64,000 nt of DNA from Yponomeuta sedellus. Its lineage: Eukaryota; Arthropoda; Insecta; Lepidoptera; Yponomeutidae. The position numbers and the translations under genes were made by a program. The stretch spans positions 15,558,768-15,622,767 of the forward strand of contig OW203745.1 in NCBI GenBank assembly GCA_934045075.1, given 5' to 3'. Positions 22,601 through 40,600 of this stretch are shown piece by piece. Below the pieces are notes generated by a model that saw nothing but the letters and a program-made list of their open reading frames with translations, was not told the DNA's origin and ran no database searches. Position 1 is the first letter of the stretch. Each line of letters opens with the position of its first letter.

Positions 22601-25600
22601 GAAATTAAGGCCAAAGTGTATGAACAACTGCCAGAACAAACACAAACACATAACATAACATAACATTTACATACAGGCACATACATTTCTTCTGGCCCCA
22701 CACTAGGATACCATGTGTAGTGGGAACCAAGAAAGAGCAAGAAACATCCAAGACCTGAACCCGAGACCTCTTGCATGTTAGGTAGATGCGTTACCTCTGC
22801 GCCACAGAGGTCGTCAAAAACAATGTTATCCAAAAATATGAAACACACCCGACCCAAAGAATTATTATACTATTCTAGAGTTATAAAACAAATTTGGGAA
22901 TGTCAAAAATTACACGTCAATATCAAAAAAATGCCGAACTATTATACTTATTCAGAGGGTATCAGAATAAAATACTTTTATACAGATATTTTGTAAAAAG
23001 AAAAATCCATTTAGTTATTCTATAATGTTTTGATATAATAGATAACCTCAACTTGTTATAACTTATCAATAAATGTGGCCGATGACTGTTAATGAGATAC
23101 CTCAATGATCGTTGATAGCCTCAATTCAGATATTGTTAGACGATGGACCTTCTGTGTTTACTTTTGAGGCTCATGTAATTGGTGGTACGAGCTATAAAGT
23201 GCTTGAAATATGTCTCCTAAAGAGACAAAGTCTGCATAATATTCTTAGAACAAACGTTATGCGCCCGCCGCCGGCATAAAATTCGCATAGGCAGTCTTGA
23301 ACATATAGAATTTAATAGATATTTAATGAAAAAACACATCTCTACAATGTACTGTACAGTTATTACTGCGCATAGCAAGCGTTGAGGAAAGTTAACACTC
23401 CAGACACTAAGGTTTCCTCACGATGTTTTCCTTCACAGTTAGTCAGTGGTAATTGCTATCGTGGTAGTGGTATTGTTAAGCCTTTGGTGCCGGCTATCAT
23501 GTAACGGCAGTCGTTTAGCCATGTCAGAGGCCTTATGGGTGGCTTGATAACTTCTGACAGTAAGGCCCGACACTTTCTTACAATCCTCCGCCAACCTGGA
23601 CTTGGCCGCCGTGGTGGTGGAGTATGGCTTAACCTTCCCGCGATTCAGGAAGAGACCCGTGCCCCAGCAGTGGGGACATGCAAGGGTGGATAACGATTGC
23701 TACGACATAGGTACTTTACAAATGTACCTACATAAGTTAGACAACACAGTCATAGGTAATTATCGAAGCCACGGCCTCCCGGCTTGGGCCAAACGCTTCA
23801 CAATGTACTGTAATTGGATTGTAAGACTTTGCTTATGTAGATTTCAGATTTTGGATGAAAGTGTAGTAGTATAGTATTGGGAACTCTAGGACACTTTTCC
23901 GTCGTGAGGGGCTCACTGCGTTCGCCGTCACTCCTTCAAAGTGTCCTAGAGTTCCCAATACTATTGTGGGAAATATGCAATCTAACCATTTCATTACTTT
24001 TTATCTAAGACCTGATTAAACTTTAAGGAATTTTAGACTAAAAAACAACTTACTGAAACTGGATACTGGGTTTTCTCGCAACACTAATAACATACTCGGT
24101 TGGCACTTTACACAAAGCATTATGGTAAATTATTAACTCTCGAGTATACATTATAAGCGTTCAATATATTGTGTTTAGAAGGTACTTAATTTACGAATGG
24201 AAATTTATAGTTTCGTTGTCACCGTAGGTATCCACTAAAATTTCCTCAAAAACTTAGTTTAAGACATAATATCTGGAGTAATTTTGATTTAGTTATCACC
24301 GCTAAGGTTTCCACCAAAATTAATCCGAGCTCCTCACAGAATCGACCGCTTATACTGGGCTCAAATGAAGAGTGAATCTAAGTTGAAAGTCTGCATTTCC
24401 GCACAAAGAGAGTTCATACAACGATTACGACAACTACCAAAGCAAACGTCACTCACCACACAGACCTTACATACGTCAACATTCAAACATTGGTAATGTG
24501 TAGTAGTGATGAGAATTTGCAAGCGCAGCACGAGCACAGGTGAGGATTGTTTGTTAGCCGGCTATCGCATTGCACGGTTTCGCGATAAAATGCAAACTAA
24601 TCAAAACACATTAATCTTCTTGTGCGACTGAGAACAACACAAATACCGTTGACTGCCTGGATGGTCTAGCGGTATCAAGTTAGACTACCAAACCAGAGGT
24701 CGTAGGTTAGATTCCTATCGGAGGCCGTCATACTTTCATTTGTACAAATGATCTCAGTCTGGGTGTTTTTCCATGTTTATCCTTGTCTGGTTACCATAGC
24801 ACAGGGTATCCTAGTTTGGGACCAGATCAAGTGATTGTGATGTGTGAAAGTTATTATTATTATTCCTTAACATTTGAAGCATTAGGGTTTATGACGCAAT
24901 AGTTCATTATTACTTGTTAGTGATTGTAGTGCTCTATGGTACTGTGGTGTGGTGATGTGACTTTTCGCTGACTCGCACATATGGGCAGTTCTCGATAAAT
25001 ACGGTATAAATCGTCTCGTATATCATGTTAGGACCTGTAGATGTGCGAAGCGCTGAATAATTGCTGATGAAAATGTCTAGTCCGGAGGGCCAGGTGGTCC
25101 AGAATTAAAGTATACCTAGGGCTGTCACAGTTACATAATAACTTTCAGTATAAGCAAAGTTTATTTTCTATCATCACGTTATTTATTATTAAAGATACCT
25201 ACCAGTTTTAATAAGCTATTTATTAGTATGACTACGTATATTGTCTATCTATTCTACTACAGGCTAATATTATACGTTTACTCAAATATGTAATTATAGG
25301 ATAGAAATGGGTTGGAATGAAAATATTAAAATCGATTTCCACAACCAGACGTGACAAAGGGTCAAGAACGAACTTGTCATAACCTGATTCCGATTTCATG
25401 TTTTTAGTACTTCATGGCTATCTTACAGGGCCGCGTTTCATACATAATACTAGAATTTATAGTTTATGTACCTACAATTCGATGTAGGTACATTGCGTAG
25501 TCGAATCTTCATACTGGTTAATCTGTGAGATAATCGCTATTCAATGTATTTTCGAATCGAATTTTCATAGTAAACCATGATTATTATAGTTCTATAAAAC

Positions 25601-37600: not shown

Positions 37601-40600
37601 AAATCGGTCTGTACGTTAGTTGGAACACGATTACTTTTTAAAATTTTTTCAAATGCATTACACACTTCATTCATTGATTTAGTTTTTAATGGAACAGTCC
37701 AAACATATTTTGAAAAACAATCTATAATGACTAAAATAAAATTAAATCCTCTATTGTGTTTTCGAATATGTTGGATATCAATTAAATCCGCTTGCCATAA
37801 ATCATCGATTCCTTTAAGAATAACTTGCCGTCGATTGAAATTTCTTCTAGCAGCTCTATGAATCTCGTTCACCACTTTTTCTTTACTCATAATTTCTACT
37901 GGCAATGTCTCTGATTGCTACCAACTGATCTTTGATAATAGAACTAACTTCTACCCTTGTACACTTTTCATCTAACTGTTTCTGAATCAGTTGTATCTGA
38001 CTCTTTATACTTTTTAGCTCGACAAGAATATCATGCTCTTTGCAAAATAACTTTAAGTTTTGATCAACATACTCTTTGTTGACAGCCTCATCTGGTAGTA
38101 CAGGAAGTCTCAATCCTACCAGTTTTTCTGATTTCAAGTCATATTCTCCGTTAAGGTTTTGAGTAAGATTTTTATTATTGGTGCTATAAAATATTTCTGA
38201 TGGACGAAGTCTTTTATGCACATGGTGGCCAAATTTATCAATATTCATCATTTTTTTAAGAAGGTTGAACAAGAACTGATGGAAAATACATTTGAGTTTG
38301 TAATTATATTACTTTATTAGACCACATTCACGCAGTTCTTCAATGATAGAAATAATTTCGTTATTAAGCCCTGTATTACCAGCTTCGCGAGACGCAATAA
38401 GTAATTTTAAACGTTCCACCAATTCATTTGGATCATCCCAGTACACATAATCCACATTTTTATTCATTTTTTTCAAGACTGGTAACCCTTCTCCTTGCGG
38501 CAGACTTTCAATACTGCTAGAAGTATTTTTGGTTAGTTTAAAGAGAGGTTTTATTATTTGCAAATACTTCATACCTCTATTACTTTTTATTGGCTGTTTA
38601 GGACTGAAATCACGACGGTGAGCATTTGTTTCTAACAGTAATTGTTTATAGTTTTTTAAATCATCAGGCTTAACTAAACTTAAATTTGGTTTTGGTTTCA
38701 ACAATAATTCAGCTAATCCAGGTGTATTTAAATAACTTTTCCCGCCAACTGAAATCTTATTTTCTGTAACTGACACTCGCAGTGATCCCAACATAGTTTT
38801 TCCTCGCTCCAGCCTTACTCCATAAGGTACATTACTAAATATTTCCGATGACAATGACCAAGAAGAAGAATCTTGGCGAGGACTCTGAACAGATTCAAGA
38901 GTTTTAAACGATGTGTCACTTGAATCACCCATGTTTAAATCGCCTTCATCAGTTTCACTAAATGCTTTCTGTTCAGGTTTTTGGGAGTCACGATCACTAT
39001 TTTGCATAAAGTTGTAGCTGGTAGATGCACCATCATCGATTTCATTAAGGTCTTTGTTAGTATCAATGTTTGTTTTAGTGTCCCAGTGTCTATCATCCCA
39101 ATACTCTTTATTAATCTTTTCATTTTTTGCGGCGATGCTTTTTAGTGGACCTGTTAATGGTTTGAAAACCTTTTCCAATACTAGATCATTATCGTGGTCA
39201 ATATCTTTCAATTGTTTAAACTTTCTTTTTACAGCTTCAGCAGATTCTACAATCTGTGTTTTTAGTATCTTTTCCATAGCGAGATAAAATATGTACTTTC
39301 TCTCGCAACGCAAACCGATTAGTAACGACACTTCGATCCGTAACTCATTATAAATAGCACAAATATGCTTAGTCAAAGACAACGAATTTGTCAAAGTTCA
39401 TTCTGTAACATCCTTTACCTTTTTCACAATCTTTATTAATTACCAAATAATTATAAGGCACACTCCATATTTTTTTGCACATCTCTCGAAACTGTGTCCA
39501 GCTCATATCTGCGTTAACATGTTCGTTATAAATATGTCGTAGATTGATGTCATCCTGTTTAAAAATTATAATCAAATTAGCATTATCCCTGATCAATTGC
39601 TTTGGTATCTTACTGTATGTTTGATTCAAATAGAAAGAATCAATCTTTTTATGTCTACCCATCGCAAAATAATCACGTATGTTATTTTGTTTTTCACAAG
39701 CAACGTCATCAAATATCATTACGGAGTAAGGTTTGGCATTTTGATGACTTATCACTTCTTCGTTGTCACGAAATTTACTGAAATTTATCTCAGGAACCAT
39801 GCTTAACACTTTATCTAAAAAAACGTATTTTGGCTGGAAGAGCGTTTTAGAATAAAGGTAAACGTTTCGGTAGCGCAATCCATTTTTGTGCAATAGAAGA
39901 CCTATCATTACGTTTGTTTTACCGCAGTTCGAAGGACCACAAATTATGCATCGAATTGTATTTGGTAAAAGATTTCCATGTAGTTTTATTTTGTTGTTAG
40001 ATTCGCTACAAATGTTTTCCAAACGTAATGTTTGCGCTTGTTGTATAAATTTCATTCTTGAGTAAATAAAATAAAAACGATACTAACACCTAGAACTGCA
40101 GGCGTGCAATGAAGTGATTGTTGTATTTGACGCTTATATAAATAATTCCTATGAATGAACTGAAGTAAAAAAGAGTTTCCGTTTTAGTAAGTTAATCAAG
40201 TAATGAAATGGTTAGATTGCATATTTCCCACAATAGTATTGGGAACTCTAGGACACTTTGAAGGAGTGACGGCGAACGCAGTGAGCCCCTCACGACGGAA
40301 AAGTGTCCTAGAGTTCCCAATACTATACTACTAAGTGTAAGTGTAGAAGGGTGTAAAGGTTCTTTAAAAATATTAGAATATACTATATAAGAAAACGGGA
40401 GATCGGGTCTTGTGGCGCACCCTGGGGGAGGCTTATGTCCAGAAGTGGACTGCAATTGGCTGAAATGATGACTATAAAAGTAATAAGAAACGCTTGTGGC
40501 CTTGTCGAACCGAGTGATTGGAATCAATCACTTGGGTTAAGCAACAACAGGAGCGGCTAGGTGCCACATGTGTGACCATCCCGTAACTACCGCTAGTGGC

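What the first reader, a model, noticed from the sequence alone, without database searches (positions are those of the whole stretch)
23859..40338. A complete, apparently young Polinton with all virion and replication genes open
Both 135-bp TIRs read identical, the 6-bp duplication AAGTGT is perfect, and polymerase, integrase, ATPase, protease, two capsid candidates and a PLA2-like protein are all uninterrupted with catalytic residues visible. Most Polinton copies in animal genomes are decayed, so this one is a candidate for an active, possibly virus-forming element.
Basis: partly seen in the sequence, partly recalled or inferred. Interest (0 to 1): 0.88.

Follow-up and report, generated by a model that had tools for sequence, protein, structure and literature searches.

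The report
Young virus-like transposon burst in moth
The window holds one of roughly a hundred nearly identical, freshly inserted copies of a virus-like jumping element (a Polinton/adintovirus) in what appears to be a moth or butterfly genome, and the element carries a small protein built like Maelstrom, part of the animal defence against jumping genes.

Summary
A 16,468-bp element (23865-40332) has identical 135-bp inverted ends, a perfect AAGTGT target duplication, and open polymerase, integrase, ATPase, protease, capsid and PLA2 genes. It is an adintovirus-type Polinton with the gene layout published for Spodoptera Maverick 2.

It is one of a burst. In the same genome 105 scored places (the window's included) encode its ORF6 protein at 98-100% identity, 102 without a stop. 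All 21 further copies whose two ends were both found carry an exact 6-bp duplication. Twenty copies taken at even steps differ from the window by 10 bases and one indel in 35,220. A second family, 73% identical in DNA, also looks young.

The least expected result is ORF8 (33310-33801). Its model has the DEDD-exonuclease fold; most catalytic residues are lost, but it keeps the E-C-H-C residues that bind zinc in Bombyx Maelstrom, a piRNA-pathway protein, at matching D-to-E and C-to-H spacings. The motifs hold in 52-54 of 56 aligned sequences.

Kind: known. I found no report of ORF8's nature in three searches. Virion formation and present activity are untested.

The parts
23859..23864 (.). left target-site duplication AAGTGT
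23865..23999 (+). left terminal inverted repeat, 135 bp, itself containing a 40-bp-arm inverted repeat
24000..28456 (.). left arm without clear long ORF; 24734-24864 is 82% like a repeat in the window's right flank
27041..27199 (.). near-perfect palindrome, 79-bp arms, 87% complementary; RNA fold -115 kcal/mol, z = -18.6; of 40 places scored in the genome 37 have a family-1 ORF6 on the expected strand within 40 kb
27561..27954 (+). first unit of a tandem duplication (458-bp period); overlaps ORF 27480-27920, a possible small coding exon
28019..28412 (+). second unit of the tandem duplication, 96.4% identical, its ORF shorter
28457..31960 (+). PolB, protein-primed type DNA polymerase by motifs, 1167 aa, with endonuclease-VII-like stretch (below cut-off)
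32649..33011 (+). ORF of 120 aa, no credible Pfam match; coding status uncertain
33310..33801 (-). ORF8 (named by position and length), 163 aa, DEDD-exonuclease fold with E-C-H-C residues (Maelstrom-like pseudo-nuclease)
33798..35003 (-). ORF7, major capsid protein, double jelly roll, 401 aa
35146..35817 (-). ORF6, 223 aa, candidate minor capsid protein (position only)
35820..36152 (-). PRO, adenain-like cysteine protease, 110 aa
36191..36910 (-). CAP, PLA2-domain protein, 239 aa
36964..37890 (-). INT, rve integrase with C-terminal chromodomain-like stretch (below cut-off), 308 aa, D35-D96-E130
37883..38251 (-). 122-aa ORF, weakly phage-tail-fibre-like; 49 relatives
38309..39277 (-). ORF2 (named by position), 322 aa from the first ATG (361 aa from a TTG), no family match
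39369..40055 (-). ATP, A32-like packaging ATPase, 228 aa
40198..40332 (-). right terminal inverted repeat, 135 bp
40333..40338 (.). right target-site duplication AAGTGT

Best explanation
This is one full-length copy of a very young family of adintovirus-type Polintons (Mavericks) in what appears to be a lepidopteran genome. The element most likely replicates its linear DNA with its own protein-primed polymerase, and its retrovirus-like integrase inserts the product at many sites with a 6-bp staggered cut, giving identical TIRs and a fresh duplication each time. It carries a full set of virion-type genes (capsid, packaging ATPase, protease, PLA2 protein), so it probably can move between cells as a virus-like particle. 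Shown: structure, gene content, intact frames, about 105 near-identical places, and exact duplications at the copies examined. Inferred: replication mode, present activity, particle formation. I further propose that ORF8, a Maelstrom-like pseudo-nuclease, binds RNA and interferes with small-RNA silencing; the fold and residue pattern are computed, the function is inference.
For: TIRs, TSD and ORFs; Pfam families; 1594 MCP relatives among 5027 candidates (120 listed), including Spodoptera moth adintovirus 1 hexon at 69%; gene order of Spodoptera Maverick 2 as I read it from the text and Table 2 (PMC5803895, passages). Copies: 105 family-1 rows with ORF6 at 98-100%, 92 with identical score, 102 without a stop; 40 of 40 scored PolB places full length and open (the best 40 of 414 candidates); 14 of 14 TIR pairs and 7 of 12 single TIRs gave exact 6-bp duplications; 10 mismatches and one indel in 35,220 bp over 20 copies taken every fifth row. 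ORF8.
Against: No transcript, small-RNA, read or population data. A minority of copies are broken (2 of 10 PolB genes), and the ORF6 and PolB lists score the best candidates first, so broken copies are under-counted: one copy with both TIRs, its TSD and the hairpin (C1:20082553-20099019) has no scored ORF6 row. In 5 of 26 copies the second end was not at the expected place. ORF6 is unproven as a capsid gene. The protease match is below Pfam's cut-off and PolB has no Pfam polymerase match. Open genes in each copy do not prove that each copy is self-sufficient. For ORF8, no sequence-level link to Maelstrom was found, and the fold scores of ordinary exonucleases tie with Maelstrom's.
Confidence: 0.9

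Rival explanations
1. The copies spread only as an intracellular transposon; virion genes are kept because the source lineage was a virus until very recently, but no particles are made in this host.
For: All copies seen are in the assembly; near-identity leaves no time for decay, so open virion genes in copies do not prove they are used here.
Against: Between family 1 and family 2 (73% nt identity) MCP and ORF8 remain open and conserved (74% and 54% aa), so these genes were maintained before the burst; MCP has 1594 relatives.
Confidence: 0.3
2. The copies reflect repeated independent germline insertions of a circulating exogenous virus rather than copies moving inside the genome.
For: Star-like differences: in the pieces compared, all differences but one shared site are private to single copies; a second, divergent family also looks young.
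Against: About a hundred insertions in one genome are more simply made by copying within the germ line; no relative was found in 2 scans of viral contigs, though records near the window's genome may be left out there.
Confidence: 0.2
3. ORF8 is an ordinary proofreading or repair exonuclease helper for PolB, not a Maelstrom mimic.
Against: The second catalytic position, E in active enzymes, is Q in 56 of 56 aligned sequences; N148 at the last catalytic D is N in 53 of 56, and C144 is C in 54 of 56 (positions assigned from PMC4408791 and recall). PolB has its own exonuclease-like motifs.
Confidence: 0.25
4. The near-identical copies are an assembly artefact or contamination.
For: Only one assembly was available.
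Against: 21 copies with both ends found have exact 6-bp duplications; in the 10 pairs compared, the flanks are unlike the window's (68-80 of 100 bases differ); contigs are 10-27 Mb long; copies carry private mutations, two breaking PolB.
Confidence: 0.02

Closest known systems
Sf Maverick 2 (GenBank KY042019) and Sf Maverick 1, Spodoptera frugiperda (PMC5803895, passages read)
   Same: Eight small tandem genes (ATP, ORF2, INT, CAP with PLA2, PRO, ORF6, ORF7, ORF8; order read from the text and Table 2) plus POLB, on the opposite strand in Maverick 2. Most protein lengths are close (PolB 1162/1167, ATP 228/228, INT 310/308, ORF7 404/401, ORF8 158/163). The paper reports transcription in Sf-RVN cells. 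A Spodoptera frugiperda ORF 7 protein is among the MCP relatives at 69%.
   Different: The present element has an extra 122-aa ORF between ORF2 and INT and a longer ORF6 (223 versus 148 aa); a 4.4-kb left arm with hairpin and tandem duplication; defined TIRs and TSD; about 105 copies. The paper's Fig. 2 legend shows ORF2 and ORF6-8 without identifiable domains; here ORF7 is a DJR capsid and ORF8 has a MAEL-like fold. ORF2, ORF6 and ORF8 were equated by position and length, not by sequence.
Spodoptera moth adintovirus 1 (proposed family Adintoviridae, Starrett et al.; that paper is not held, recalled)
   Same: Hexon 69% identical; adintovirus gene set.
   Different: Clearly different by protein identity; here a high-copy young burst.
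Maelstrom MAEL domain (PMC4408791, passages read)
   Different: H-to-C spacing is 4 instead of 9; ORF8 has no HMG box; no sequence similarity was found; the two further histidines of the EHHCHC definition (PMC2628886, passages) could not be located for lack of an alignment.
[not shown]
   Same: Same fold and an ECHC zinc site; in arenaviruses the domain takes part in suppressing innate immunity.
   Different: The arenavirus enzyme keeps DEDD catalysis (PMC4408791); ORF8 has lost most of these residues.
Ichnovirus genes AsIV-cont00151-ORF1 and GfV-D6-ORF1
   Same: Predicted structures match ORF8 (E 3.1e-11 and 4.2e-10, 33% and 30% identity).
   Different: They lie in wasp polydnaviruses; function and origin not tested here.

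Membership tests
Polinton/Maverick | long terminal inverted repeats | tested here: met
   135 bp, 100% identical
Polinton/Maverick | 6-bp target-site duplication | tested here: met
   AAGTGT in the window; exact in 21 of 21 further copies whose two ends were both found; in 5 of 26 copies the second end was not at the expected place
Polinton/Maverick | protein-primed PolB | tested here: inconclusive
   1167-aa ORF with polymerase motifs (motif names recalled) but no Pfam DNA_pol_B match at E<=1
Polinton/Maverick | rve integrase | tested here: met
   PF00665 E=5.4e-13; D35, D96, E130
Polinton/Maverick | A32-like packaging ATPase | tested here: met
   Pox_A32 30.5 bits, cut-off 22.8
Polinton/Maverick | adenain-like cysteine protease | tested here: inconclusive
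   Peptidase_C5 E=0.0024, 18 bits, below cut-off 21.3; motifs present
Adintovirus | hexon recognisable from known adintovirus hexons | tested here: met
   69% identity to Spodoptera moth adintovirus 1 hexon
Adintovirus | integrase with C-terminal chromodomain | tested here: inconclusive
   PF00385 at 277-301, 17.9 bits, below cut-off 25.1
Adintovirus | OTU-like domain at the N-terminus of PolB (definition in PMC11071296, passages) | tested here: inconclusive
   no OTU Pfam match; not searched by fold
Adintovirus | virion formation | not testable with these tools
   needs particles
MAEL domain | DEDD-nuclease fold | tested here: met
   [not shown]
MAEL domain | E-C-H-C residues | tested here: met
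   E 56/56, C 54/56, H 55/56, C 54/56; metal binding and spatial arrangement not tested
MAEL domain | two further histidines (EHHCHC) | tested here: inconclusive
   no alignment with Maelstrom over that part was available
MAEL domain | sequence match to Pfam Maelstrom PF13017 | tested here: not met
   not among the 21 families matched by any of 56 members at E<=1; hence ORF8 is called MAEL-like, not a member

The most novel reading that the evidence does not exclude
ORF8 is a virus-encoded mimic of Maelstrom that binds RNA, or takes Maelstrom's place in the Piwi complex, and so blocks piRNA silencing in the germ line; this counter-defence is what let two related adintoviruses each multiply to many near-identical copies in one genome. 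Polinton-type elements would then carry an anti-piRNA gene, shared with parasitoid-wasp polydnaviruses.
Probability: 0.15. Interest if true: 0.88.

Novelty: new member of a known kind. Interest (0 to 1): 0.62.

Why it matters
Whether animal Polintons still move and form particles is a long-standing question, hampered by the decay of most copies (recalled). Here an assembly with contigs of tens of megabases holds about 105 near-identical, mostly open copies plus a second family that looks young, so insertion polymorphism, transcripts, small RNAs and protected DNA can be sought in living animals. The Maelstrom-like ORF8 gives a specific, testable candidate for how such elements evade the germline defence.

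Tried and rejected
Searched and empty: IMG/VR scans with the integrase and an MCP alignment gave no relatives. ORF8 against the PDB by profile and Pfam for 56 members gave nothing credible. A model of ORF6 from 4 sequences was poor (pLDDT 45.4) and was not searched by fold; its role rests on position only. The sigma-70 scan of the left arm is not meaningful for a eukaryote. PHROGs gave weak matches apart from transposase families for the integrase.

Corrected on the way: one search read the PolB of the C5 copy as broken (858 aa); this was my fetch window, because 948 extra bases lie between hairpin and PolB; one search shows that PolB open at 1167 aa. So 2, not 3, of 10 are broken. In one search six of ten copies seemed very different inside only because they lie in reverse orientation. 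The ten copies were picked for perfect TIRs, a bias; the 20 copies were taken every fifth row of the ORF6 list (rows 1-96 of 105, so rows 97-105, the weakest, were not sampled). A recount against coordinates showed that the ORF6 list is not a full census: of 40 hairpins, 31 have a family-1 ORF6 at the normal distance, 6 at a changed distance (-139, +948 twice, +2126, +15969, +18091), and 3 have none on the expected strand; one of these 3 is a copy with both TIRs and TSD.

Considered and set aside: host gene capture in the left arm (ORFs 26672-26944, 27480-27920: no Pfam match; exons not joined); the palindrome as a host repeat (40 of 40 scored places are 100% identical, mostly within family-1 copies; 110 candidates, 70 unscored). 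The Maelstrom exon hit in the host may be a repeated piece of the exon, since a similar stretch lies nearby; I used it only to read the H, C and R spacing of Bombyx Maelstrom.
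Full report
What is there. The element spans 23865-40332 (16,468 bp). Its TIRs are 135 bp and identical, and AAGTGT is duplicated exactly on both sides. Each TIR contains a shorter inverted repeat of 40-bp arms. Reading from the right end on the minus strand: ATPase, ORF2, a 122-aa ORF, integrase, PLA2 protein, protease, ORF6, major capsid, ORF8; PolB lies on the plus strand. The left 4.4 kb holds no clear long gene: a stretch (24734-24864) 82% like a repeat in the right flank, a 159-bp near-palindrome (RNA fold -115 kcal/mol against a shuffled mean of -42) and a tandem duplication of a small ORF.

What it is. Pfam gives DJR capsid, rve integrase, PLA2 and A32 ATPase above cut-off, protease and chromodomain below. 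PolB has no Pfam polymerase match, but shows the expected motifs, whose naming is from recall. A protein search with the capsid returned 1594 relatives out of 5027 candidates (120 listed), with named ones in Helicoverpa, Ostrinia, Chrysodeixis, Loxostege and Spodoptera, among them Spodoptera moth adintovirus 1 at 69%. The gene order is that of Spodoptera Maverick 2, as I read it from passages of PMC5803895, plus the 122-aa ORF, which has 49 relatives among 66 candidates, three named from Plutella. ORF2, ORF6 and ORF8 are equated with the published ORFs by position and length only.

How many copies and how young. The window lies in a 657.5-Mb assembly of 57 contigs. The ORF6 protein search had 386 candidates; 150 were scored and all matched: 105 rows at 98-100% identity, the window's own among them (92 with identical score, 102 without stops, 3 with one stop; one row covers only residues 47-223), and 45 rows at 70-71%, none with a stop (recount). 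The listing ends at 150, so the second group is a lower bound, and badly broken copies of the first may be missing: a copy with both TIRs, its duplication and the palindrome (C1:20082553-20099019) has no ORF6 row. First-look counts, unscored and so only indicative, fit roughly 105-115 copies of family 1: 110 for the palindrome (40 scored, all 100%) and 231 for the TIR, two per copy (40 scored, all 100%). PolB gave 414 candidates; the best 40 were scored and are full length and open, 36 with identical score.

From the 40 TIRs I formed 14 pairs; all 14 have exact 6-bp duplications, no two alike. The flanks of 10 pairs were compared with the window's and are unlike them. Of the 12 unpaired TIRs, 7 have the other TIR within 12 bases of the expected distance with 0-3 differences and an exact duplication; 5 have none there. 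Ten of the pairs, chosen for perfect TIRs, show 1 mismatch in 8,000 subterminal bases, 3 in 12,429 bp of MCP and 31 in 34,489 bp of PolB; 20 of the 31 are two bases private to the window copy. In these ten, MCP is open in 10 and PolB in 8. To avoid that choice I took every fifth row of the ORF6 list (rows 1 to 96, 20 copies): 10 mismatches and one indel in 35,220 bp of MCP plus ORF8, five of the mismatches at one shared site, with both genes open in 20 of 20. Private differences are thus about 1.4e-4 to 3e-4 per base per copy. With a recalled butterfly mutation rate of 2.9e-9 per base and generation this is roughly 50,000 to 110,000 generations; assembly and copying errors would make the true age less.

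A second family. I sampled five of the 45 rows, four of them from the 33 rows of equal score: those four are identical over 1,351 bp; the fifth (C9) is a third lineage (254 mismatches in 1,361 columns). Family 2 thus looks young, on a small and not random sample. It is 73% identical to family 1 in DNA over MCP-ORF8, with MCP 74% and ORF8 54% in protein. On contig C15 the distance from a family-1 ORF6 to the palindrome is 15,969 bp longer than normal and contains a family-2 ORF6; I infer that a family-2 element of about 15,963 bp sits inside a family-1 copy. That interval itself was not read.

Mechanism. Shown: intact genes, TIRs, 6-bp duplications, near-identity. Inferred from established knowledge of Polintons: protein-primed replication by PolB, integration by the integrase, packaging by ATPase, protease and capsid. 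Not shown: activity today, particles, and any effect of ORF8 on piRNA silencing.

Verdict. The size and youth of the burst and the nature of ORF8 raise the interest; the lack of expression and population data limits it.

Noticed in passing
window 14567-16503 and 63114-64000: Tandem ~308-bp repeats, most with a tRNA-Ser(GGA)-like gene, in both orientations.
   Followed up: no
window 27041-27199: A 79-bp-arm hairpin carried by family-1 copies (40 of 40 scored places 100% identical, 37 with a family-1 ORF6 on the expected strand within 40 kb); candidate source of small RNAs. One place, C6:18281982, has no family-1 ORF6 nearby.
   Followed up: partly
window 27561-28412: Tandem duplication (458-bp period) of a small ORF just upstream of PolB.
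   Followed up: partly
G000 C5:1084052-1101467 and the copy at C1:23137963: Two copies each hold exactly 948 extra bases, at different places (between hairpin and PolB; between PolB and ORF6), perhaps the same mobile element inserted twice.
   Followed up: no
G000 C15:2829630-2854375: A family-2 Polinton appears nested in a family-1 copy, inferred from distances.
   Followed up: partly
G000 C18:18066576-18066710 (L081): Maelstrom last-exon match; a similar stretch lies nearby, so it may be a repeated fragment of the exon.
   Followed up: partly
window 1525-2512: Tandem array with a 58-bp unit, 17.6 copies.
   Followed up: no
ichnovirus ORFs AsIV-cont00151-ORF1, GfV-D6-ORF1, GfV-B38-ORF1: Predicted structures and 23-33% identity match Polinton ORF8, hinting at gene exchange between Polintons and parasitoid-wasp polydnaviruses.
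   Followed up: no
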